DNA from: Hericium rajendrae
Lineage: Eukaryota; Basidiomycota; Agaricomycetes; Russulales; Hericiaceae
Length of the DNA stretch: 64,000 nt
Direction: 5' to 3'
Assembly: GCA_033439255.1 (NCBI GenBank)
Contig: JAVRDV010000016.1
Location: 124,001-188,000, forward strand
Shown: piece after piece, positions 14,753 to 56,162 of the stretch
How the letters are laid out: each line of letters begins with the position of its first letter
How positions within the stretch are numbered: position 1 is the first letter of the stretch
Program-made: the position numbers and the translations under genes
Notes under the pieces: generated by a model
Databases searched by the model: none
Told to the model about the DNA's origin: nothing
What the model saw: only the letters and a program-made list of their open reading frames with translations

Positions 14753-17167
14753 ATGTCGATCTTTTTTCCCGACTTTCACCCCGATCTATTGCTGAATTTC
14801 ACTCGTCGCGCTCTCCTGCCCAATTTAGGCCTGCCCGAATTATTTGGCATAAGGCTGCCTGGCGCCCCGAAGCTACCTGATTTAAATAATGTTCAGGGAG
14901 ACGTCTTCTATCTCTTTCCAAAGGTTCGTAACGTTATGCATTGCCCGCTCGTCCTGATATTCACATTACCGGGCATCCAGCGTGCCGAGAATTTCGTGTT
15001 CTTTACCATCAATGACGTCCAAGCGTTCAAGGACGCGCTCGCAAATTACAAACCGACAACCTCGCAAGATGTGCTTCGCAATCTGCGGGCAATTGCTCTT
15101 TCCAAGAGAGACACCGGTGGCCGCCACGTCGACATCATACAGCACCAGATTGCTCTCAGCCGTTCCGGACTGAACAAGCTTGACCAGACTGAGGCAACGC
15201 TCGACACTCACTTCGATAACGGTCCTATGATCAAAGAGAAGCCCATCCTCGGTGACGGAAGAGACTGGGACCCTATCTTCAATGACGGCAAGGCTGACGG
15301 CGTGTTTGTCGTCGCAGCCGGGGGTCAGTGACCATGCGCATCCCTTTGTTTTGTTTGCAATATTGACTTCCCATCCGCAGATGCTAGAGATTGCGACAAA
15401 GCATCCGATAACCTGATATCCGTCTTCGGTGCAGGGCTTACCGGCGTCGTTACTGTCAAGGGAAACCTTCGTCCTGGCAAGTATAAAGGACATGAGCATT
15501 TCGGATATGAGGACGGCGCCTCGCAGCCCGCGTTGCGGTACGTGTTCTTTGGGCTCATCGGATGAGTGTCGCTCATAGCTCTGTATTCAGAGGTCTTGTC
15601 AAGCCGAACAAAGGCCAACTTCAAGTCGATCCTGGCGTCATCGTCATGGGGTATCCGGGCGATCCGTTCTACGACAACCCAAACGGCCCTCAGCGACCGG
15701 CTTGGACGACCGACGGCACCATCATGGTCTTCAGGAAGCTCGAGCAAGATGCTGTGGGGTTCGAGCATTATCTGGCAAAGAACGGCCCCAAATGGCGAGA
15801 GTGGCTCACTCCGGAGCAAGTCAAGGATATTAATCCTCCGCTCACCGACTCAGAAGGCGCCGAACTATTTGGCGCACGTCTCGTTGGCCGTTGGAAATCG
15901 GTACGTGCTTGTGCTCCGGTGGCTTAATTATATGCTCAATCTGGGGTCGTGACATTAGGGCGCACCGCTTGCGAATGCGCCTTACCGTGATAATTACAAG
16001 CTCGCTGCCCTAGACAAGAGAAACGACTTTGACTACACCGTGCCTGGGCAAACTGGCCCATCCGACCGCTTCTGTCCCTTTTCTGCCCATACTCGCAAGA
16101 CTGCGCCCCGTAACTTGGACCCTTATGTCCAGAAGAAATTCTTGGAATCAGCCGTTGTCGTGCGCGCAGGCATTGCGTATGGTCCCGAAGTACGATCAGT
16201 TCTGCGCACCTGATGAGAGACGCTTGTTAACGTTCATGGTCCAGATCGCTCAGGCTGAGCGCGATAATTATGATCCCAACGCCAAGAGCCCAAGAGGACT
16301 CTTGTTCGTCTGTTACCAGTCGACGGTCGCAAACGGCTTCATGACTCAAACGGCGGCCTTCGCCGGCAATGACCACTTCCCGACAACAAGCCTTACGCCC
16401 CAGATTATTGGTATGTCTATGAATGAATAGATCAGAAGTCCCTTTCTTATGGCGCCTCGTCGACAGGGCAAGATCCAATTATAGGCGGCCCGTCGAAGAA
16501 TCCCGTCGTCGCGGCGCAGTTCTCAAATCAAGAATTTTTCGTCACGTCTCGAGGCGGAGAGTACTTCTTCGTCCCGTCGGTCTCGACGCTCAAGGCCCTG
16601 GCAGGTGCCGGCAGGGCGCAGGAACTGTCCGGACCCACGGATGTCATCGATCAGAATGCAGTGGGCTCTGCGTTGAGGTCGGCAACGGTCAATAATCCTT
16701 TCGCTCAGAACGCAGAGCAGCTGTCTTCTGCGTTGAGGTCAGCAACGGCGAGCAACCCGGTCCTCGCTAATTTGGTCGAGCAAGGACAAGAGGCAGTTGC
16801 TCACATGGGGGCCGGCCAGTTGCCATTTGGTAACCCTCTGGGTGGTGGTAACCTCCTGGGAGGTAATCCTCTGGGGAATAACCCCATCCTCGGTAATTTG
16901 GTCGAGCAGGGACAAGAGGCGGTTGCTCACATGGGGGCCGGTCAGTTGCCATTTGGTAACCCTCTGGGCGGTAACCTTCTGGGAGGTAATCCTCTGGGGA
17001 ATATGGTCCAGCAGGGACAAGAGGCAGTTGCTCACATGGGGGCCGGTCAGTTGCCATTTGGTAACCTTCTGGGCGGTAACCCTCTGGGTGGCGGTAACCT
17101 CCTAGGAGGTAATCCTCTGGGGAAGAACCCTCTGGGCGGTAACTTTTTCGGTGGTCTGGGTAGATAA
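14753..17167 (+). CDS. DyP-type (dye-decolourising) heme peroxidase with repetitive C-terminal extension
   Basis: Seven exons (14753-14923, 14981-15323, 15381-15537, 15591-15900, 15959-16189, 16245-16410, 16467-17167) give 692 residues. The DyP signature GYEDGASQ lies near residue 215; its Asp is the distal acid. SAHTRKT near residue 370 should carry the proximal heme-ligand His. The peroxidase domain ends near residue 500, the normal length of the family. DyP enzymes use H2O2 to oxidise dyes, phenols and some lignin model compounds. The start MSIFFPDFHPD shows no classical signal peptide, so the protein may be intracellular or exported unconventionally. The last exon adds about 190 residues of Leu/Gly/Asn-rich sequence with three near-identical repeats, absent from DyP 2, whose exons 2, 4, 5 and 6 have identical lengths. 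The gene is convergent with the lectin-GMC gene. Confidence 0.93.
16775..17160 (+). repeat. in-frame tandem repeat encoding the DyP 1 C-terminal extension
   Basis: Repeats start at 16775, 16901 and about 17006, so spacings are 126 and 105 bases, both multiples of three. Each encodes a core QGQEAVAHMGAGQLPFGN followed by a run of GGNLLGGNPLG-type pentads. Near-identity at the DNA level indicates recent expansion or gene conversion. Confidence 0.9.
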
Positions 17168-18201
17168 GGGTTTTAGACCTTGAAGATGTACACGCATTTC
17201 CTCTAGTGTTGTAAGCTTTTGCGTTCAGTCAACTCCTCTGTCCCATTTACGTTTCGTCGCTGCCTGAGTGTAAATTAGGATTTCTCCGTATTTTGCCTGT
17301 AAAGATAACGTCTAGGTCTCTTTGCACTTTCGAAGGCCGAATCGCACGTACTGGCAAGCCGTGTTCCTGAGCGAAAGACGGGCACTGTAAGAAAAGTTAG
17401 ACTGCTCACCTCACTCTCGACGCACAATGGCGGAAGAGCGGGTATTGTTTGGAAAATGCCGTGGGCCTTTGCTGGCCTCGCACGTTTCCGAGGCAAGTTC
17501 TCTGCAACTCAGAGCCTCGGCGTGCTCGCTAGCCGATGCCAACAGCAGTGCATAGGAAATCTTCGTTATACTGAGACCTGAAATGCCTTTCCATATATAA
17601 ATATGTCTACTTGCTTCAATGTGCTCGGGCCTATGGATGTGTTTCTCCGAGTAAACCTGATCTCAAAATGCTTCAATCATGATGCGCGTATGTTCCCACC
17701 GCTGCGAGTGCGCCCACAGCCGAATGTCCGTGCGTTCCATTCCCCCCTTCCAGCGGGCTTATAGCAGAGGTGGCTGCGCTCCGCCTTATGACTTACATGT
17801 TATTGCATCCTCGTGATCTCCGGGACCACCTATCGTGAATCGTCCGATGAATACGAACCTTCCAAGTCGACCTGGTCTGCGCTTATACCGATGGCACTGC
17901 TCGGTTTCCAGCCTTTGATACCGTATTACTATAGGTGATGGCATAAGCATACTCAGCTTATTTGAACGAGATAAGAATGCTTCGGCTTTATTTTTGGGGC
18001 ATTGCGGCACCATCTGTGATCTCAACTAAGCTTCTGAACGTGCAATAAAGATTCATCAAGTCAAATACTATCGGGCCTCCGCATACAAGTATCGATATCG
18101 TACAAACTGTCTGCCGTATGTAATGGGGTTTTCTGGCGTTTGGAATAGACGATGAAATTCGAGGAATTTGGGAGTGTACCACAGAACTCCTGCGCGCAGC
18201 A
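17168..18201. other. convergent 3' spacer between DyP 1 and the lectin-GMC gene
   Basis: The spacer is AT-richer than the flanking genes. No frame with recognisable content is seen; it presumably holds both 3' UTRs and terminators. Confidence 0.45.
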
Positions 18202-20793
18202 TTAATGAATAGGCAAGATCGTACCAGGATGCGCGACCCTCAACTCCGGCTCCGCCAAAAATTCCTCCAGGCTGTTGAACGCAAGTCGGAACACAGATAC
18301 CGCCTCGGCCGTGCCAGCACACCTGGTGCGCGTAGTCCACTCTCCGGGCTCTAACTCGGTATCGCCATCAGTGGTCGAATACACATCCGCGCGATTGCCA
18401 ATGAAGACTCTGATCTTCATTCCGGAGTGATTCACGACGTACACCGTGTTAGGATCGATCCGACCGTTCTGCGTGCTGATTATATCGCCATCAGGGGTCG
18501 TGAGGCTCAATCGGGGTGCGAGGACCTCGCGCGAGAGCCTCAACGCAAGGGCGGCGAGAGTGAGGGTCGGGTTGACCTCTGGCGACATGGGGAATACCGA
18601 GAGATCGCAGACATATACACCGTCATGGCCAACGAGTTTGAGGTCCTCATCGAGACAGTAAGTGGAAGGGCCGCCTGACTTGCCGCGCATGGGAATGGTC
18701 CCAAGCTCATGCGCGACACCGCCTAGCTCCAACGGCTGGAAGTAACGGGGATCGGTGTTTGTGTGGTCCTTCAGGAACTCGATGTTGAGCACTTCCTGCA
18801 GCGTCGCCATGACCTTGTCTGTCGCCTTCCTCAGGCTCTTCATATCAGGATCGTCGTTGTTGAATGGACGCTCGCGGTTGATGGTCACGACCGGCTCATC
18901 GTCGACCATCTCGACCATGTTATTGGGGTTGAGCGGTGCAGGTCGGATGAACGCGATGATCCATTTGGGGAAGTCGTTGTACTGGAGGAGATTACCGCGC
19001 GGAAGGAAGGAGGAAGCGTCGATGGACATGTTAGAGAGTACCACTTCATCCTCGGCGCCCTCGCGCTCAAGCCTCATGTAGGTCTGCAATTTCATCGTGC
19101 CGACTTCCTGACGAGCCTGAGGAATGCGATAACGGAAGGGCTGGGCCTTGAAGAAGATGTCGTGGTCAGTCAGATGGAGACCACCGTGTTTCTTCAGGTT
19201 GACGCCACTCCTGAGCAGAATAGCAGGTGACGCGACGCTACCTGCAGCGAGCACAACCCTTCCGTTGGTCTTCAGTGAGATAGTCTCCTCCCTCCCATCG
19301 GGCGTGCGGACGACGACGCCAGTGGCCTTCCTCTCGTCGTCGAACTCAAGAGCGCGCGCTTCTGTCTCCAGCAGGATCTTGAAATTGGCATGCTCGATGT
19401 CCGACCCGTCCGGCGCCTTCGGCTTGCTCATCGCGATCTCCAGCAGCTTGTCGATGGTGCTGTATGCTCCACTCGCGAAGTCGAAATTCTTGTCGTCGCG
19501 GAACTCAGACGCGATGCGGCCCCATTGCCACTGAACGCCGAGGTCACCCGCCATGTTCAGGCGCTCCATCAGGTCCTGGTGGATGGGCTTCGTCGTCGGA
19601 AGGGAGAGGGACATAAGTGTCTCGGCCTCGCGGAAGTACTTGCTCACTAGATCGTGGCGGACGCGAGGGTGGAAGTGACGTGAAAGGATTTCATCGTGGA
19701 CTCGAGGCGCGAATAGACCCCAGGCTGCGCTGCGACCTCCAAGGCAGTACATGGGCCCACCCTTCCAGTCATCGACATTCATCTCCTCTGAGAAGTTGAA
19801 GTTCTCACGGAACTTGGCGAAGAACGTGTCGTTCTGCTGTCCACGGTCCTCATTCAGGCCGGACGGACGAGCGGTATTGAGGCAGTGCGAGTGGAAGGCC
19901 AGGTTGCCGCGCTCGATGACAAGGACCGATTTGGCGTCCTTACCGAGCATGGAGTTTGTCTCGAAGAGGTCGCTAGCGATGATACCTCCCCCGATGCCGG
20001 TGCCAATGACGATGATATCGTATTCATTGAGCTTGGCCTGGTCGACGGTCAGCTGGAAGAACGATCTCTGAAGGTCCCTGTCGGCCGCCGTGGGGCCTGG
20101 TGGGTTATAAATGTCGACGCGTTCGAAAACCCAGCGCTGATGGACCGAGTCCTACAAATGACAATCAATAATGAATCCCTGGGAAGTGAGAAGGGTTAAA
20201 CACACATGGTCCGGCTTATTGAATCGAACCTGATAAAGGTCATCCATGAGTATCACCTATTATATTGAGACAGGAATGTCTACGCACGACTTTTTCGCTA
20301 ACTTTATCATGCGAGCAATCCAGTTCTTCCGATTCATGGAGGAGCGTTATCCTGATTGGTTATCTCAGCGCGTCATAAAAATGTCAAAGAGAGACGACAC
20401 CCACTTGGAGAACTTATGAATATGAAATGATCCCTCTGTCAGCACCCAAGTAGCTGATTTGCCCGAAGCTTCCGGCACCGGATAGCCATATCCATCGAGG
20501 CCACGTTCAGCGGACTTCACAAGGCCAGAATTATCGAAGACAGAGTGGATGTGGTACTGATCGTTGTCGATAGGCGTGATGACCCACTGTCAGAATGAAG
20601 CCAGCGTCAGAAATCAACGATAGGTTTACAGCCGACAGGTCCTTACCTGCTGTTTCGTGTCTGAAGCATTCAGAGGGTTGAGCTTGACGGAAGGATTGCC
20701 GCCAGGGACGAGCTCCATGTACAAGTCTGGAGAATGCTCAAGGAGCCTAATGCGATAGATACCCTTGGCCGAGGGCTTGCTCTGAGGTTCCAT
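18202..20793 (-). CDS. GMC-type FAD oxidoreductase with an N-terminal R-type (beta-trefoil) lectin domain
   Basis: Exons 20647-20793, 20401-20586, 20206-20256 and 18202-20151 join in phase to 777 residues. Residues 1 to ~140 form an R-type lectin domain with QxW-like motifs KQQW and HQRWVF and the phrase MELVPGGNPS, very close to the stand-alone lectin at 46.3 kb. From residue ~150 follows a GMC oxidoreductase: FAD dinucleotide fold VIGTGIGGG, GGRSAAWGLF, VVLAAGSVASP, HELGT (catalytic-region His) and VCDLSVFPMSPEVNPT. About 110 residues of unknown character end the protein. GMC enzymes oxidise alcohols or sugars and many pass electrons to O2, making H2O2. No signal peptide is visible. The 144-nt intron at 20257-20400 contains a remnant resembling the lectin's third exon (NQDNAPP) without a usable donor, so the lectin may lack one strand set. 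The neighbour is DyP 1, tail to tail. Confidence 0.85.
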
Positions 20794-33155: not shown

Positions 33156-34864
33156 ATGCTTTGGGTAGACCTGGCAAGTGATTTTTGTTCTCTTTTTAAC
33201 ACAAGGCTCACGTACGTGCGCAGTACCGACCTAGAGCTCTCGACGACCTGGACTACCATGCAGGCTTATCCGACCGACTGAAGTCCCTCGTGCGTCGTCA
33301 GTGGGATGCAGCAGAACGAATAATATGGCTGATGCGCGTATCTGCAGGCCGCGTCTGGCGACTTCCCGCATATGTTGTTCTATGGCCCCTCGGGCGCGGG
33401 GAAGAAAACGCGCATTGCAGCCACACTGAGACAGCTGTTCGGTCCCGGTGTCGAAAAGGTGCATGCCACTCTGTTTTTCACCTTTGTATATTGCAGTATG
33501 TTGACGCTGCGTCTGCGTGCAGCTCAAAATCGACCAGCGGGTCTTCCTCACGCCGTCGAGGCGGAAACTGGATGTGAACATCGTACAGAGCAATTACCAC
33601 ATTGAGCTCACACCGAGGTACGTTTTCATCTCGTAGATAGAGGTTGCTTGGCTGAATACGGGACGCTGCAGCGAAGTGGGGAACTATGATCGGATCGTGA
33701 TCCAGGAGGTGCTGAAGGAGATCGCGCAGACGCAGCAGGTGGACCTCAGCGCGCGGCATCGATTCAAAGGTCCTCGCTCCACATACCTCTTCGCCAGTCG
33801 ACTTTGCTGATGTTTTCTGGATATCGCAACAGTGGTCATCATCAACGAAGCGGACTCGCTCTCGCGTGATGCGCAGGCCGCGCTGCGCCGCACCATGGAG
33901 AAGTACATGTCGAACATGCGCATCATCCTCTGCGCGAACAGCACGAGCCGGCTCATCGCGCCCATCAAGAGTCGATGTCTCCTGATGCGCGTCGCGGCTC
34001 CCAATCATGACGAGGTGCGTTATTGGCTTGCATCACCCGCTTCACATGCCTCTTGGGGCGGCCATCACACATCAATCGACGTCGTTATGTGCTTTCCTTT
34101 GGCGTTGATGGCGGGACGTGTGGATCGGGACTGATCGTGGTCAATTTGGCAGATGCACAAGGTGCTGCTCCGCGTCGCCGACAAGGCGGGCATCCGCGGG
34201 GGCATCCCGGACGAGGCCGCCGATGAGATCATCAAGGATGCAAACGGGAACCTGCGCAAAGCCATCCTCGTCTTCGAGGCGCTCAAAATGCAGATGTGCG
34301 TTCTCCTTTTGCATCACTCGGAGCGAGCTGCCGACGCTGACCGCGCCAGCCCCGATCTGACCGGGCCGCTCACGATCGCGAAGCCGGACTGGGAGACGTA
34401 CTGCCACAAGGTGGCGGACATGATCGTGCAGGAGCAGAGCCCGCAGCGCGTGATGGACGTGCGCGCGAAGTTCTACGAGCTGCTCAGCCACTGCATTCCG
34501 CCGACGGTCATTCTGAAGGTATGCATGCATGGCGTCTTGTCGCGGGCTGTGCTCACGGCTCGGCAGACCGTGGCGGATCGGGTGGTCGAGCGTGTCGACG
34601 AGGCTCTGAAGGCGGACATCATGCATTGGGCGGCGATATATGTGCGTGGCGCTCTCACGTTTCTGGCACGAGTCAGGCTGATGCGTGTGATGCAGGAGAA
34701 TCGCATGCGACTCGGGAACAAGAAGATCTACCACCTGGAGGCTTGGGTGGTCAAGGTGATGTCGCTATACAAGGTAGGCATGCTGTGTCGAGGTATGGAA
34801 TGGTGCTGACTATGGCGTCTAGCATTTCTTGTTTGACATCGATATGACTGGATTCGACGATTGA
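33156..34864 (+). CDS. RFC5: replication factor C small subunit (yeast Rfc5 / human RFC3 type)
   Basis: Eleven exons (33156-33173, 33224-33289, 33348-33458, 33523-33617, 33672-33769, 33833-34014, 34153-34295, 34350-34518, 34567-34641, 34696-34773, 34823-34864) give 358 residues, close to yeast Rfc5 (354). The RFC boxes are in order. [10 protein letters not shown] is followed by the P-loop [19 protein letters not shown] replaces the usual DEAD box, as in Rfc5. [15 protein letters not shown] and the SRC motif in IKSRCLL, which supplies an arginine finger, come next, then the collar domain. Rfc5 is one of five subunits that load PCNA at primer ends. The first exon codes for only six residues, and its donor is GC (GCAAGT), the accepted GC-AG class. 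No GT donor keeps the frame. The product reads VDLYRP where many homologues have VDKYRP. Confidence 0.95.
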
Positions 34865-38821: not shown

Positions 38822-40590
38822 ATGTCGCCCCAGCCCCGCCTCACGCTCGCAGCGCACATGCGCTTGTACCGCCACGCGTACGCGCTCGCGCTGTCCGCGG
38901 CGATGGGCTCCATCTTCTACGGGTGGGACATCGGCCTCATTGGCGGCGTTATCTCTATGCCGTCGTTCAAGGCGTCCTTTGGCGTCGACAAGATGTCGCC
39001 CAGTGCCGCCGCCGACTTCAACGGGAACGTCGTGTCCGTGCTGCAGGCCGGGAGCTTGTGAGTCGTACCGCGCCGCGCTTGCGATTGGCGGGCATGCTGG
39101 CTGACGCGTGGTACGTGCAGCTTCGGAGCGCTGTTCACGGGCCCGTATTCGTCGAAGTTTGGACGGAAGCCTGCGCTCTTGCTATCGGGCCTCATCTACA
39201 TCGTCGGTTCGGTCCTGCAGTGTATCGTCGGGCTCGGCAGCAGCCAGGCGGTTGCGGTCCGCGTTCTGTTTTTCAGTCGTTTCGTGGGTGGATTCGGCGT
39301 CGGGATGGTCTCCGCCTTGGTGCCGTCCTACGTCTCGGAGTGCGTGCCCAAGTCCATCCGTGGTCGCTGTACGGGAAGCATGCAGTTCGCGAACAACGTT
39401 GGGATTATGTTGAGCTGTGCGTACCTTTTTCCCGCACTTATGCAGACCCGTGCTAATTCGTACATTCGCTAGACTGGGTCAATTATGGCTGCCAGAAGAA
39501 TATGGCTGTCAGTCCTATGCAGTGGCGACTGCCGTTTATCGTGCAGATTATCCCCGGCGTGTGCTTCGTGTTCTGCATGATCTTCCAGCCCGAGTCACCC
39601 CGGTGGCTCGTCGAGCACGGACGGATCGACCAGGCCGCCAAGTCGCTCGCCTTCGCCGCCGGGCGGCCTGTGGAGGACCCGGATGTGCAGGCGACGTTGG
39701 AGGAGATCAAAGAGGACTTTGTCGGGAAGGAGCACCTGCCCATCTGGAAGCAGTTCAAGATGATGGGCGAGAGCCGCATCACGGTCCTGCGCTGCTTCAT
39801 CCCGTCGCTCGTCATGTTCTTCCAGCAGTGGACCGGCACGAACGCGATCAACTACTTCAGCCCGGAGATCTTCGCCGGCCTCGGCCTCAGCTCGACGTCC
39901 GCGGGCCTCTTCGCGACGGGCATCTACGGCGTCGTCAAGGTCGTCGCGGTCGGCTCCATCCTCGTCTTCGCCGTCGAGCGCCTCGGGCGCAAGAAGTGCC
40001 TGCTCGTCGGCTCCGTCGGGCAGGGCCTCATGATGCTCTGGATCGGCGGCTTCAGCGCCGCGCACCCGCGCCCGGACATCGTCCCCGCGTCGTACGTCTC
40101 GCTCGTCGCGGTGTACCTCTACGCCGTGTTCTACTGCGTCGGGTGGGGCCCCGTCGCGTGGGTCGTCGCGGGCGAGGTCGCGCCGAACCACGTGCGCACC
40201 GCCGCGCTGAGCGTCGCGATCGCGGTGAACTGGCTCTTCGCGTTCACGATCTCGAAGCTCACGCCGATCATGCTGAACAGCATCGCGTACGGCACGTTCC
40301 TCCTCTTTGGCGTCATGTGCATGGTCATGGGCGTGTGGACGTACTTTCTCTTCCCCGAGACGGGCGGGTACGCGCTCGAGGACATCCGCTATCTGTTCGA
40401 GCGCGATATGGTCGTGCGCGCGCTCGAGGACGCGCCGGGCGGGAAGGTTTTCCTCGGGAATAGGCGGTCGACGCCGCTCGAGGAGCTGCGGGATGCGGAT
40501 GCGGTGGCGAAGGTGCAGGGTGCGTCCGACGTCGAGAAAGGCTCTACGGAGATGGTGGAGGATGTCGCGCCTGGCCTTCCAAAGGCATAG
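38822..40590 (+). CDS. MFS sugar/quinate-type transporter
   Basis: Three exons (38822-39057, 39121-39416, 39473-40590) give 549 residues, the normal length for the sugar porter family. Signature motifs are in order: FYGWDIGLIGGV in helix 1, FGRKPALLL in the first cytoplasmic loop, FVGGFGVGM and PSYVSECVPKSIRGRCTG. PESPRWLVEHGR precedes the long central loop, then QQWTGTNAINYFSP in helix 7, ERLGRKK, and FPETGGYALEDI after helix 12. The tail is hydrophilic and acidic. The NYFSPEIF wording and short first loop resemble quinate permeases as much as hexose carriers, so the substrate cannot be fixed. It should lie in the plasma membrane and import substrate with protons. Confidence 0.9.
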
Positions 40591-46314: not shown

Positions 46315-46987
46315 TCAGGCACCTTGCACGTATTCAAACTCCCAGCGCTGATTGGGGAACGACTACGGGAAGCTGGTCAGACCAAGAAGCCCAAAAGCAT
46401 TTAAGAGTACTTACATCCTTGTCATAGTAGAAGTGGACCTGGACATAGATCATCAGTACGTGGGGCAGTCTAGGTGGGGGGACTTTCGAAGATACTTACC
46501 GCGTCCGAGGCTCCATCTTGATTGTCTAAAGGATTCGGAGACCCGTCCTTTCTGATCCTGGGCGAATATCATTAGATAAGATATAACCTCGGGAATGGCC
46601 CTACGTCGACTTACTTGGAATACGTAGCTCCACCGCTCGTCTCCTGGCATATGCGCCAGACATCAGAGTTGCCCGAGGTGTCCGGGATAGGGAAGTTATA
46701 TCCCCAATAGCCATAGTTGGACTTGACCACTCCAGACTGGTCGAAGAAGCTGTTAATCGTGTACTTGTCCTTTTGACCCGTGGGGTTGATGATCCACTAA
46801 GCGCCTCTCGTCAGAAATGATAGTGGTATCGGGGCTGAGTAATCACCTTCTGCTTGTCCTCGGATGCGTCCAGAGTGGTGAGCTTGATATACGGATTCCC
46901 ACCGGGCACAAGTTCCATGTACGAAAGATTGAGTAGACGAATACGGTAGACACCCTTCGTCGTGGGCCACGGGCTGCGAAGTAGCAT
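46315..46987 (-). CDS. stand-alone R-type (beta-trefoil) lectin
   Basis: Five exons (46847-46987, 46615-46796, 46500-46557, 46415-46438, 46315-46362) give 150 residues, the size of one R-type lectin domain. KGVYRIRLLNLSYMELVPGG, NPYIKL, DKQKW (across the first splice), YGYWGYNFPIPDTSG and the terminal QxW-like NQRWEF match the N-terminal domain of the lectin-GMC protein closely. Such domains bind galactose-type or other sugars through three similar lobes. No signal peptide is seen, as is usual for cytoplasmic fungal lectins. The ATG is only 34 bases after the stop of DyP 2 on the same strand, so it may share the transcript, or have a promoter inside the DyP 2 coding region. An upstream ATG followed at once by a stop (rc of 46998-47006) forms a tiny upstream ORF. 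Confidence 0.85.
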
Positions 46988-47021
46988 GGTGAATACGCGT
47001 CAGGCCATACTATAATCGGCC

Positions 47022-48921
47022 TTACAGAATTGTTCCAGGGGCGATGCCCGAGCCGGAATTGCTGGAGCCAGATGCTAGAGACTGGAGCGTCGTGACCGGC
47101 GGGACGAAGAAGTACTCCCCGCCTCGAGATGTGACGAAAAATTGTTGATTGGGCAATTTCGCCGCGACGACAGGATTTGCCGATGGGCCGCCTATAATTG
47201 GATCTGGCCCTATTGAGGAGGCATCGTAAGAATGGATGCTCAGATCTATGCATTCGTAGACATACCAACAATCTGGGGCTGGAGGCTTGTCGGCGGAAAG
47301 TAATCATCGGCCGCAAATTTCCTGGTTTGAGTCATGAAGCCTTTCTCAACCGTCGACTGGTAGCAAAGGAACAGAAGGCCTCTGGGGCTCTTGGCGTTGG
47401 GATCATAGTTATTGCGCTCAGCCTGAGTGACCTAAAATAAACGTTACCAAGCGTGTCTCGTTTACCACATAGAGCTCGTCGTACCTCAGGACCATATGCA
47501 ATACCTCCGCGGACGGCAACGGCTGCTTCCAATTCTTTTCGCTGGACGAAAGGATCCAAGTTACGAGGGGCTGTCTTGCGAGTGTGGGCAGAAAAAGGAC
47601 AATAGCGGTCGGAAGGGCCAGTTTGTCCTGGAACGGTGTAGTCGAAGTCGTTTATCCTGTCTTGGTAAATGAGGGTGGGATCATCACGGTAAGGCGCATT
47701 CGCAAGTGGTGCACCCTAATCGCACGTCCATATCAGCCATACAATCAAGCCGTGACATTCACAAGCACATACAGATTTCCAACGGCCGACCAGACGCGCG
47801 CCAAATAGCTCAGCACCTTCTTGATCCGTGAGGGGAGGATTGATATCATTGACTTGCTCCGGAGTGAGCCACTGACGCCACTTCGGGCCGTTGTCAGCCA
47901 GGTATTTCTCGAATCCAATGACATCTTGCTCCAGCTTCCTGAATACCATGATGCTGCCGTCCTTCGTCCAAGCTGGTCGCTGAGGGCCATTCGGGTCGTC
48001 GAAAAATGGATCGCCCTTATACCCCATGACGATGACACCAGGATCGACTTGAAGTTGACCTGCGTTCGGCTTGACAAGCCCTCTGAATCCAGAGCTATGA
48101 GTGACACTCGTTTGATGAAAGCGAAGAACAGTTGCACATACCGCAACGCGGGCTGTGAGGCGCCGTCCTCGTATCCGAAATGCTCGTGGCCTTTTTCCTT
48201 GCCCGGACGGACCTGACCCTTGACGATGACGGGATTGGTAAGACCGAAGTTAGATACCAGGGCATTGGAGGCCTTGTCACAGTCAACAGCCTCTATCACC
48301 CCGAAGTCAGTGCTGCAGCAAAAAAAAAAAGGTAATAGAGACGAAGGATCACTGACTTTCGGCTGCGACCATAAACACGCCATCAACCTTCCCGTCATTG
48401 AAAACGGGATCCCAGTCTCTTCCATCACCGAGAATGGGCTTCTCTTTGATCATAGGACCGTTATCGAAGTGGATGTCGAGTGTCTTGTCCGTCAAGCCGA
48501 GCTTGTCTAATCCAGAACGGCTAAGAGCGAGCTGGTCCTGTACGATGTCAATACGATTGCCAGCGGAATCCCTCTTGGTGCGAGCAATGTCTCGCAGATT
48601 GTCTAGCAGATCTTTAGAGGACGTCGGCTTGTAATTCGTGAGGCCAGCCTTGAATGCCTGGACGTCATTGATGGTGAAGAACACGAAATTCTCGACAGCC
48701 TGGATGTCCGACAGAATCAGCTATTTCAGGACGAACAGGTACTCGCGACTGATGTTACGGACCTTGGGTAAGAGTAAGAACACATCTCCCTGAACATTAT
48801 CCAGTTTAGGGAGACCCTCAGGTCCTTGGTGCGGGCCTGGCAAGCCTAAGTTAGGCAAGAGAGTACGACGAGGAAAATGTTGCAAGAGATCGGGATGAAA
48901 GTCGGGGTGAATGATCGGCAT
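47022..48921 (-). CDS. DyP-type heme peroxidase 2
   Basis: Seven exons (48763-48921, 48357-48699, 48142-48292, 47773-48082, 47485-47715, 47266-47431, 47022-47209) give 515 residues. Exons 2, 4, 5 and 6 have the same lengths as in DyP 1 (343, 310, 231, 166 nt), showing recent common descent. GYEDGASQ and SAHTRKT are intact, so distal Asp and proximal His are present. The N-terminus MPIIHPDFHPDLLQHF parallels DyP 1 and has no classical signal peptide. The protein stops soon after the peroxidase domain with ...SGIAPGTIL and lacks the repeat extension of DyP 1. It is followed 34 bases later by the lectin gene. Confidence 0.93.
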
Positions 48922-53157: not shown

Positions 53158-54899
53158 TCAAGGCTCCTGTCCGAGTTCTGCTGCCCCGGCCGAGGATTCG
53201 ACACCCTCGGGTGTCTGCGTGGAATGCGATGGTGAGACGGTCGAGGTATGTGACCTCCTAGCTATCGCTCTTGGCTGCGCTTGTGTAGTAGCAGCGGCGC
53301 TACGGGTTTCCCCATCATCGTCATCTTCTCCAGTGTTGAGAAGATCAAACATCGCCTTCTCTTCTGGCTGGCGTGATTCATTTGGATCATCTGATCCATG
53401 GAATTGCGGAAAGACAGCACTATTGAAGTAAGCCATCAGCTTGCGGTGCTTGACAGGCTTCTTCGCCTTCAGAACTGATAACATATCCATGCGAGTGTGA
53501 TAGAATTTCCCAAAGTCATATCCATCTTGGACTTCGACAAACTCGGATGCGCCGCTCAACACATAGTACAGCTGCAACGTGCAAGATCAGCTTTCACTGG
53601 GAGAGAGGGTTGGGAAGCCACGCACCGCTGTTACAACATACGACAGCAATCCGTGTGTCACCTCGGTTAACCTCCATATCTCTCCGTATGTCTCGCGAAC
53701 CTTGGCCTTTGTCCCGTTTTGCAGATACGAAGGGCCTTTTAACAATAGCACAATGGCCTTCAAAACTGGGTAAGCTTTTACACTCTGAGGTTACGTAGAG
53801 AAGTGGTTATTTACCTTTAGGATGCAAGGATTGCGAAGGTGCGCGTCTTCTTTGTTACCGGAAGCTAACAGGTCCGAATCGTACAGGAATCGATAATCCG
53901 TCAGAAGCTCGTTTACATCGGCAATAGTTGGGCGTTTGGTCTTCTCGATGAGAAGAAACCGTTCCCGGCTCCCGAGCTGGCCTGAGCCAAATACGAGGTC
54001 GACATTGTTGTTGAGCTTCAACACAAAAGTTGAACGGATTTCTCTCATCCCAGTCATGACCTTATACAAAATTGGAAAGGTAAGCTGGCTTGATGTCAAA
54101 TTCATGGAATCACTCACAGCACTTTCGAACCATTTGCGCCCACGGTATTTTCTCAATCGCGATGGCAAATCTTCCTCGAACAGCGTGACAGCTCGATCGC
54201 ATTGCTCACGCTCCTCGGAATCAAGCTCAAGGTCGTACTCCGAGTCGCTGTCTTCGTCCCGCTCCTCAGACGGTATGAAGTGCTGCCAGAAGCCTATCGG
54301 AAGCCAGAGCAATCTGCATGCCGCGAACTGTCTTCCAAAGCGTCGAGCTCTCATCTGAAAAATCTGAAATCTACATAGCTGCCAGCCAATGCTATGTCTG
54401 GTATAATAGTGCTATGGCTGCTATGTAGTTGGGCCACACAGCTATACAGGACTATGGTAGCTATCATAGCTATCATAGTCATGGGTGATGGGTACATAGT
54501 ATTACATAGTAATAGGACATTACTATGCCTGCTATGTAACTTATGTATTTCTAGTCTCCCTCTATGTATCCTATAGATACTATGTTCCATACAGAGCTTT
54601 AGTCTGCTATAATATCTACAGTTAATGTAGAGTCTATGATATTGATACTATACTCAAAACAGGTCAAATTAAATTATATTTAACTACTACGACAATCAAA
54701 TACACTAAGTTACATGTATGCCTGCGAGGTGACAAGGCGTGCATGCGCAAGGGCGCGACTGATATGCACGACACTGCACGCGAGGTGCAATGGTGCACGC
54801 GAAGCCCGGGACCCGTGCGCGAGAGTCGCATGCTGTGAGGCCCGTGCACGATAGGGCGGGCCTGCGTTATGCAGCAAGCCTGCGCGCGGGAGATGCGGA

Positions 54900-55345
54900 A
54901 CGCGGGGTTCGTACGCGTGGCGCGGGGACCGTTCACGAGGCGCGTGGAAGGTGCGCATGGCGCGGGGACCGTTCACGAGGCGCGGGGACCGTTCGCGTGG
55001 CGCGGAGGACGTGCGCGTGGGCAGAGGACGTGCGCGTGGGGCAGAGGACGTGCGCGATGCACGGACGACGTGCGCGAGGGCGACGGCGACATGCGCAAGG
55101 GCGACGGCGAGGGCGACGCGCGCGAGGCGAGGGCGACGCGCACGAGGCACGGACGACGGGCTCGAGGGGACGGCGACATGCGCAAGGGCGAGGGCGAGGG
55201 CGACGCGCGCGACAGCGAGGGCGACGCGCGCGAGGGCGAGGGCGACGGGCACGAGGCGAGGGCGACGGGCGCGAGGCGAGGGCGACGGGCGCGAGGCGAG
55301 GGCGACGGGCGCGAGGCGAGGGCGACGGGCATGAGGCGTGAGGGA
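54900..55345. repeat. GC-rich minisatellite, unit GCGCGAGGCGAGGGCGACGG
   Basis: Four near-perfect 20-bp units lie at about 55250-55330, with looser GGCGAC/GGCGAG copies upstream from 54900. Because 20 is not a multiple of three and the units lack stops, long open frames appear in several frames on both strands. They are repeat artefacts rather than genes. Confidence 0.85.
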
Positions 55346-55695
55346 CCCGCACGAGGCGTCGGCGTCGGCGGGCCCGTGCGCGATGCTGCAACCTGCATGC
55401 GGGAGACGCGAGGCACGCGGGGAGGCGTGCGCGAAGCGTCGGGGGCAGCGGGCCTGGGCGCGATGGCGTAGACGGTCGCGCGGATGGAGAGGGCCACGCG
55501 CGACGTGCGTGTGCTGGCGTGCCCGTCCCGGGTCGTGGACGATCGGGCGCACTCCGCTGATCGTGACCGTTGGAGGTGGCGCGCCGGGCGCTAGCGACGT
55601 GACGGCAAGGCGGCGAGGTCGGTGGAGGGCAAGGTGATGCGGGAGGGGCAGCAGTCGGAGGCGAGGGGGAGTGAGGGCGCGGGAGGACGAAAGAA

Positions 55696-55731
55696 GTCGA
55701 GAGTATCGCTCGAACGAGCAATACTCTCGAC
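55696..55731. repeat. 36-bp hairpin-forming inverted repeat
   Basis: GTCGAGAGTAT-CGCTCG is followed after two bases by CGAGC-ATACTCTCGAC, a near-perfect 17-bp stem with one mismatch or bulge. It lies at the edge of the GC-rich block. Confidence 0.75.
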
Positions 55732-56162
55732 GTTAGCACGAATAAACGAAATAAAAGTATTCTTTACTCACCTTCGAGACCCTCTGCATCCGCCTGAGTC
55801 CCTCCTGCATGCGGTTTGACGAGTTAGAGGGAGAGTAGGAGGATGGAGGGAGGAGAGTGGAGAGTTAATGTGGTGGAGACAGCGAGAGACGAACTTCGAC
55901 GCGCGTTTCGGTGCTTCAGCCACCGAACGAGCGAAGCTACGTTTCTCGAACCACCACAAATCAAGAAAAATCACACAAATTTAGAAAAAAACAGTAGAGC
56001 CATAAATTGTAAATACGATTCGAATGAATGAGCATTGTAAGTATCTACTATACATCAAGCTCACAGAGAGCCAAGGCCATTTAGTGGAGTCTGGCCCCAG
56101 TCTCTGACGCGATGCTCGGCAAGCGCCCGGCAGCCACGAATCCCGGCTCCGCCCGGGATTCG

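What the first reader, a model, noticed from the sequence alone, without database searches (positions are those of the whole stretch)
18202..20793. Lectin fused to a GMC oxidoreductase
An R-type lectin domain is joined in phase to a full GMC flavoenzyme, a combination I do not know as a standard architecture. A lectin would tether an H2O2-producing enzyme to a glycan surface. The close stand-alone lectin at 46.3 kb shows that the domain exists on its own and was probably captured by the enzyme.
Basis: partly seen in the sequence, partly recalled or inferred. Interest (0 to 1): 0.72.

Follow-up and report, generated by a model that had tools for sequence, protein, structure and literature searches.

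The report
Lectin-tagged flavoenzyme and lectin-tagged peroxidase
A fungal gene joins a sugar-binding (lectin) domain to a flavin oxidoreductase, and the only other copy of that lectin found in the genome sits on a peroxidase gene nearby, which suggests two redox enzymes sharing one sugar-seeking tag.

Summary
The fusion is real at the level of the gene model. Five exons (20793-18202, minus strand) encode 783 aa: one R-type beta-trefoil, then a GMC flavoenzyme. The last lectin strand lies in the same exon as the enzyme, and no Met precedes the FAD motif there. The two lectins are 46% identical and share four introns in the same phases, three of four at the same alignment column, with a 24-nt micro-exon. 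No further copy was found in the 46.8-Mb genome. A lectin-free DyP paralogue lies tail-to-tail beside the GMC gene; a third, 87 kb past the window, lost its lectin but keeps a scar. My best reading: a cytosolic pair, one making and one using H2O2, with the same glycan tag, perhaps for defence. Sugar binding, H2O2 production and transcripts are untested; the GMC copy of the lectin is below Pfam's cut-off; no fungal collection was available for comparison.

The parts
18202..20793 (-). GMC-lec gene: 5 exons, 783 aa, N-terminal R-type lectin followed by a GMC flavoenzyme and a ~105-aa C-terminal extension
   Evidence: spliced model; Pfam GMC_oxred_N and C above cut-off
20647..20793 (-). exon 1, start codon and first lectin repeat (ends in QQ, W follows in exon 2)
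   Evidence: donor GTAAGG
20405..20586 (-). exon 2, second lectin repeat
   Evidence: bounded by introns of phases 0 and 2 as in DyP-B
20303..20351 (-). exon 3, third lectin repeat, first part
20206..20229 (-). exon 4, 24-nt micro-exon of the lectin
   Evidence: same length and alignment columns in DyP-B
18202..20151 (-). exon 5, last lectin strand (QRW motif) plus the entire GMC enzyme in one open frame
   Evidence: first Met after QRW139 is residue 202, after the GxGxxG motif at 184-189
18202..18519 (-). C-terminal extension of GMC-lec, ~105 aa, no Pfam match
   Evidence: 0 families at E up to 10
46315..48921 (-). DyP-B gene: 12 exons, 660 aa, DyP-type peroxidase with C-terminal R-type lectin
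   Evidence: DyP_N 123 bits; TIGR01413 154 bits, cut-off 100.5; PDB 7anv E 4.5e-80
   Evidence: RicinB_lectin_2 27.0 bits cut out, cut-off 25.6; 25.3 in the whole protein; 46% identical to the GMC lectin
14753..17167 (+). DyP-A gene: 7 exons, 692 aa, paralogue without lectin, with a Gly-rich repeat tail; tail-to-tail with GMC-lec, 1.0 kb away
   Evidence: DyP_N 132 bits; its six introns match the first six of DyP-B in order and phase
17545..17587 (+). 43-nt stretch downstream of DyP-A that resembles DNA just downstream of the lectin in DyP-B (46265-46223)
   Evidence: blastn E 0.004; local alignment 31 against shuffle maximum 29 of 200; weak

Best explanation
GMC-lec is a genuine two-part protein: a single R-type beta-trefoil lectin followed by a GMC flavoenzyme. 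The same lectin is carried by a DyP-type peroxidase encoded 25 kb away. Most likely the lectin is a shared address tag. GMC-lec oxidises a sugar or alcohol and, if it is an oxidase, passes electrons to O2 to make H2O2; DyP-B spends H2O2 on oxidising aromatic or other targets at the same glycan surface. The proteins show no signal-peptide-like stretch, so they would be stored in the cytosol and act when the cell is broken or eaten, as cytoplasmic fungal defence lectins do. Shown here by computation: gene models, domain identity, shared lectin and introns, DyP paralogues, lectin remnant in DyP-C. Inferred: sugar binding, H2O2 production, the pairing and the defence role. My confidence in the fusion itself is about 0.88; the figure given is for the whole mechanism.
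For: One open frame runs from the lectin QRW motif through the GMC stop, with no Met before the FAD motif. The best-scoring coding stretch of that frame starts just after QRW, at 20127, and runs unbroken to 18208 (the codon model was trained on these same genes). The alignments pair His615 and Asn661 with His and Asn of cellobiose dehydrogenase (positions; catalytic role recalled). DyP-B Asp210, Arg318 and His365 align with 7anv (roles recalled). The two lectins are 46% identical, with four introns in phases 0,2,0,0; three of four at the same alignment column, the fourth 3 columns off in a poorly conserved stretch. Lectin dN/dS is about 0.42, with dS near saturation. No other place in the genome matched this lectin. 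A two-lectin profile ranks the fungal chimerolectin CCTX2 (9s11) first of 7 PDB sequences up to E 1. No strongly hydrophobic stretch at the N-termini of the three window proteins.
Against: No transcript was available. Sugar-contact residues were not mapped. Oxidase versus dehydrogenase is unknown. The GMC copy of the lectin is below Pfam's cut-off, and the genome-wide PF14200 search rang only on contig C4, at neither lectin of this window. A single provisional lectin sequence had an unrelated enzyme as first PDB hit (E 0.15) and 9s11 second (E 0.29). GMC-lec and DyP-B are 25 kb apart with an RFC-like gene and a sugar transporter between, so this is not a tight cluster. DNA upstream of GMC-lec shows no similarity to that of DyP-A or DyP-B, so nothing points to a shared promoter. 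The nearest DyP (DyP-A) has no lectin, and DyP-C lacks it. Fungal DyPs and most fungal GMC enzymes are described as secreted (PMC10512322, passages seen), so the cytosolic reading is unusual. One genome only.
Confidence: 0.38

Rival explanations
1. The lectin acts like a carbohydrate-binding module that brings the GMC enzyme to its own sugar substrate, and DyP-B to plant or fungal wall material. The two enzymes share the module by ancestry but do not work as a pair.
For: CBMs occur on cellobiose dehydrogenases (PMC6509819, passages seen) and a sugar-binding domain occurs on hybrid B heme peroxidases (PMC8945051, passages seen). Genes are not tightly linked and share no upstream similarity.
Against: No signal-peptide-like stretch, whereas CDH is extracellular (PMC10512322, passage seen). 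Only two carriers were found and both are redox enzymes.
Confidence: 0.25
2. The beta-trefoil is a protein-protein or dimerisation module and not a working lectin.
For: Pfam lectin score of the GMC copy is below cut-off (20.7 against 25.6); the third repeat is poorly conserved between the two copies and the middle repeat lacks the Gln of QxW.
Against: Best PDB matches of the profile are lectins (9s11, 3phz, HA33), though all weak; W and two QxW motifs remain.
Confidence: 0.2
3. Two separate genes were joined by the gene model: a lectin gene ending before a GMC gene.
For: No RNA evidence; several AG acceptors exist inside exon 5 between the lectin and GMC parts; codon third-position GC differs between halves, 0.583 and 0.734.
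Against: No stop between the parts, the final lectin motif is in the GMC exon, no Met before the FAD motif.
Confidence: 0.08
4. Non-adaptive fusion: a chance rearrangement that attached a redundant lectin copy to an unrelated housekeeping GMC enzyme.
For: The lectin is not stably kept here: DyP-C keeps only a scar.
Against: Both copies remain open with conserved motifs and pairwise dN/dS of about 0.42.
Confidence: 0.09

Closest known systems
Fungal defence chimerolectins (CCTX2, PDB 9S11; MOA)
   Same: R-type beta-trefoil lectin joined to a non-lectin part, fungal; CCTX2 is the top PDB match of the lectin profile; such defence lectins are cytoplasmic (PMC13324453, passages seen)
   Different: CCTX2 has four trefoils and a domain of unknown function, MOA has proteolytic activity (PMC13324453, passages and a reference title); here one trefoil on a flavoenzyme or a heme peroxidase
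Ricin-B entries annotated as oxidases
   Same: a ricin-B/CBM13 survey counts ricin-B lectin entries named galactose oxidase (5) and gluco-oligosaccharide oxidase (2) (PMC11212257, Table 6 passage seen), so ricin-B domains on H2O2-making oxidases are on record
   Different: neither is a GMC enzyme (recalled: copper-radical and AA7-type flavin oxidase); the paper's main text has no occurrence of GMC or peroxidase
Fungal GMC oxidoreductases (AA3), incl. cellobiose dehydrogenase
   Same: GMC_oxred_N and C above cut-off; nearest PDB match is CDH
   Different: only a distant match (best E 9.2e-10); N-terminal lectin, no cytochrome or CBM1 match in Pfam. The 2019 survey discarded GMC sequences with other major domains beyond a short list (PMC6509819, passage seen)
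D-type fungal DyP peroxidases
   Same: DyP-B matches 7anv, an ancestral D-type DyP, over residues 40-497
   Different: C-terminal lectin and no signal-peptide-like stretch
Hybrid B heme peroxidases
   Same: heme peroxidase with a C-terminal sugar-binding domain (PMC8945051, passages seen)
   Different: unrelated peroxidase fold and a WSC-like, not R-type, domain (fold difference recalled); that paper calls the C-terminal CBM typical of HyBpox alone among known heme peroxidases

Membership tests
GMC oxidoreductase | GMC_oxred_N and GMC_oxred_C domains | tested here: met
   34.4 and 53.3 bits, both over cut-off; but the N model matches only its last third, 140-216 of 218
GMC oxidoreductase | FAD-binding GxGxxG near the start and His/Asn active-site pair | tested here: met
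   GxGxxG at 184-189, His615, Asn661 (pairing with CDH; catalytic role recalled)
GMC oxidoreductase | oxidase activity (H2O2) | not testable with these tools
   needs enzyme assay
R-type (ricin B) lectin | RicinB_lectin profile over curated cut-off | tested here: inconclusive
   DyP-B copy 27.0 bits over 25.6 when cut out, 25.3 in the whole protein; GMC copy 20.7 cut out, 16.0 in the whole protein, below
R-type (ricin B) lectin | three repeats, each with a QxW-like motif | tested here: inconclusive
   seen directly: QQW, ATW, QRW in the GMC copy; QKW, DVW, QRW in DyP-B; the middle one lacks Gln
R-type (ricin B) lectin | binds a glycan | not testable with these tools
   no binding data; sugar-contact residues not mapped
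DyP-type peroxidase | DyP family profile | tested here: met
   TIGR01413 154.2 bits, cut-off 100.5, for DyP-B (DyP-A not run there); DyP_N over cut-off for A and B, Dyp_perox_C below cut-off for both
DyP-type peroxidase | GXXDG motif, distal Arg, proximal His | tested here: met
   DyP-B Asp210, Arg318, His365 aligned with 7anv; roles recalled
Fungal cytoplasmic defence chimerolectin | no secretion signal | tested here: inconclusive
   hydropathy of the first 50 residues only, highest 11-residue mean 0.35 (GMC-lec), 0.75 (DyP-B), 1.10 (DyP-A); no signal-peptide predictor available
Fungal cytoplasmic defence chimerolectin | toxic to fungivores | not tested
   needs experiment

The most novel reading that the evidence does not exclude
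A two-enzyme, glycan-addressed oxidative device: one lectin tag shared by an H2O2-making GMC enzyme and an H2O2-using DyP peroxidase, stored in the fungal cytosol and assembled on a foreign glycan surface when the cell is breached. It would be a chimerolectin system whose effector is local oxidative chemistry.
Probability: 0.28. Interest if true: 0.82.

Novelty: new variant of a known kind. Interest (0 to 1): 0.57.

Why it matters
What fungal DyPs and many GMC enzymes do for the fungus is largely open (recalled). If one lectin sends both a producer and a user of H2O2 to the same glycan, that gives a specific and testable role, and adds redox enzymes to the known effectors of fungal lectins. 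The one fungal GMC survey I looked into discarded sequences with such extra domains (PMC6509819, passage seen), so it would not have seen this one.

Tried and rejected
Separate lectin and GMC genes: unlikely, because the last lectin strand is in the GMC exon and there is no Met before the FAD motif.

Stand-alone lectin as donor: rejected; that lectin belongs to DyP-B.

Other copies of the GMC part in the genome: only itself at E 1e-5 (2 candidates scored), although 42 GMC_oxred_C matches exist (49 candidates scored, counts are lower bounds).

Prokaryotic or viral relatives: genome contigs gave no confirmed relative in two scans; viral contigs none for the GMC exon or the lectins. These scans need near-exact short peptides and can miss distant relatives. 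Plasmids: no match at E 1e-5 but, with the limit at 10, 164 records, best a Microcystis GMC enzyme at 24% identity and E 3e-14. I cannot explain that discrepancy between two searches of one collection. Of the 27 annotated features around it, many hypothetical, none is named a peroxidase or lectin. So the origin of the GMC part stays open.

Structure prediction of the GMC exon from one sequence failed (mean pLDDT 30.4); no fold search was made from it.

C-terminal extension of GMC-lec: no Pfam family.

Literature: 9 searches showed no paper that I recognised as describing a lectin-GMC or lectin-DyP fusion. The lists were capped: 4 of 4, 20 of 33, 15 of 15, 20 of 159, 20 of 108, 20 of 31, 20 of 252, 2 of 2 and 12 of 111 papers shown. 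I saw titles and abstract starts, plus passages of seven papers (PMC11212257, PMC13324453, PMC12355970, PMC10512322, PMC6509819, PMC8945051, PMC6126850). The library lacks most subscription journals and I could not query domain-architecture databases, so novelty in print is not established.

Rows: the E-value limits named with each call were the only filters. One search listed 21 matches; by position all 21 belong to DyP-A, DyP-B, DyP-C or the GMC lectin.

Full report
What was checked. Short GT-AG introns and gene content indicate a fungus, probably a basidiomycete (inference; no taxonomy was available).

The fusion. On the minus strand I built a five-exon model from 20793 to 18202. It encodes 783 residues with no internal stop. 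Residues 1-146 form a lectin-like trefoil and the rest a GMC enzyme with a C-terminal extension of about 105 aa without a Pfam match. Exon 5 (20151-18202) holds the last lectin strand, with QRW at residue 139, and then the whole enzyme. The first Met after QRW is residue 202, after the FAD-binding GxGxxG at 184-189. A GMC protein starting in this exon would lack that motif. An alternative upstream exon cannot be excluded without RNA.

Domain identity. GMC_oxred_C and GMC_oxred_N pass their cut-offs. The top NCBIfam matches are GMC families, all far below their cut-offs. The nearest of 27 PDB sequences up to E 0.01 are cellobiose dehydrogenase and choline oxidase, all distant (best E 9.2e-10). 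The lectin of GMC-lec alone does not pass Pfam's cut-off (20.7 of 25.6 bits), and a genome-wide PF14200 search rang only on contig C4. A provisional single lectin sequence found an unrelated dehalogenase first (E 0.15) and 9s11 second (E 0.29) in the PDB. A two-sequence profile of both complete lectins finds 9s11 first (whole-sequence E 0.0033, best single stretch 0.042) and a Ricin B-related lectin, 3phz, second (E 0.041), then R-type hemagglutinin components, among 7 PDB sequences up to E 1. PDB 9S11 is CCTX2 according to the data-availability passage of PMC13324453. The R-type call therefore rests on the DyP-B copy, the homology of the two copies and weak profile hits.

The second lectin. 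At 48921-46315 a 12-exon gene encodes 660 residues: a DyP-type peroxidase (DyP-B) and then the lectin. TIGR01413 scores 154 bits and DyP_N 123 bits; PDB 7anv matches residues 40-497 with E 4.5e-80. Dyp_perox_C stays below its cut-off (17.7 of 20). So the 'stand-alone lectin' belongs to a peroxidase.

Shared history of the lectins. They are 46% identical. Both have four introns in phases 0,2,0,0. Three of the four fall in the same alignment column; the other is 3 columns off in a weakly conserved stretch. One shared exon is only 24 nt. This is strong evidence of common descent of the genomic block with its introns. A search of the genome with the provisional lectin found only these two places (4 exon matches, 3 candidates scored). 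Pairwise dN/dS of the lectins is 0.53/1.25, about 0.42, with synonymous sites near saturation; for the DyP parts of A and B it is 0.145/0.62, about 0.23.

The DyP family. DyP-A (14753-17167, plus) lies tail-to-tail with GMC-lec, about 1.0 kb away, and has no lectin but a Gly-rich repeat tail. Its six introns match the first six of DyP-B in order and phase, and about 151 nt upstream of the two genes are alike (score 134, shuffle maximum 27 of 100). The DNA upstream of GMC-lec is not like either (scores 22 and 27, shuffle maxima 28 and 29 of 100). DyP-C lies at about C16:274861-276734, 87 kb past the window. Its alignment with DyP-B shows one large gap that removes the lectin except for its last exon, which stands downstream of the DyP-C stop and reads FNQHWVFEYVQNA and stop, against FPNQRWEFEYVQGA and stop in DyP-B. 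The simplest reading is that the ancestor of B and C carried the lectin. A weak 43-nt match downstream of DyP-A (31 against shuffle maximum 29 of 200) fits a common 3' end but does not show that A once had a lectin.

Composition. Third-position GC is 0.583 in the lectin part and 0.734 in the rest of GMC-lec, against 0.596 in each DyP gene. The GMC part is intronless in the model. Both fit a joining of two genes with different histories; they do not tell the source.

Mechanism. Shown: two different redox enzymes carry one lectin. From established knowledge: GMC oxidases make H2O2 and peroxidases use it (also stated in PMC10512322, passages seen). Inferred: GMC-lec is an oxidase, both lectins still bind a glycan, and both enzymes meet there. 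The lack of a signal-peptide-like stretch (hydropathy only) suggests the cytosol, where fungal defence lectins are kept until a grazer ingests them (PMC13324453, passages seen; PMC6126850, passage on intracellular lectins of fruiting bodies). Against this: most fungal GMC enzymes and DyPs are described as secreted (PMC10512322). Against pairing: the two genes are 25 kb apart, with an RFC-type gene, an open frame with a Whi5-like match below cut-off, and a sugar transporter between them (7 frames scanned, chosen by eye), and no upstream similarity.

Relation to what is known. Lectin-enzyme fusions (chimerolectins) are a known kind. A ricin-B/CBM13 survey lists ricin-B entries named galactose oxidase (5) and gluco-oligosaccharide oxidase (2) in its Table 6 (PMC11212257, passage), so ricin-B domains on oxidases are on record; its main text has no occurrence of GMC or peroxidase. 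A chimerolectin review has no occurrence of oxidoreductase, peroxidase or GMC in its main text but treats galactose oxidase as an enzymatic lectin (PMC12355970). The 2019 fungal GMC survey discarded sequences with other major domains beyond a short list (PMC6509819). PMC8945051 calls a C-terminal CBM typical of hybrid B peroxidases alone among known heme peroxidases. This supports 'new variant of a known kind', within the limits of those sources.

Noticed in passing
14753-17167: DyP-A ends in a ~170-residue tail with repeats of the type GQEAVAHMGAGQLPFGNPLGGNLLGGNPLG, absent from DyP-B.
   Followed up: partly
L036:6861-8797: Third DyP paralogue (DyP-C) that lacks the lectin except for the last exon, left as a scar just after its stop codon.
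   Followed up: yes
18202-18519: C-terminal extension of GMC-lec of about 105 aa without any Pfam match at E up to 10.
   Followed up: partly
L001:1501-2013: A different ricin-B lectin match on contig C4, not found with this lectin's protein sequence.
   Followed up: no
34135-34809: Replication factor C subunit 3-like gene between the two lectin-bearing genes.
   Followed up: no
39457-40590: Sugar transporter gene (Sugar_tr, 246 bits) between the two lectin-bearing genes.
   Followed up: no
54710-55763: Long overlapping open frames on both strands with low-complexity Arg/Pro/Ala-rich translations, looking like a repeat region.
   Followed up: no
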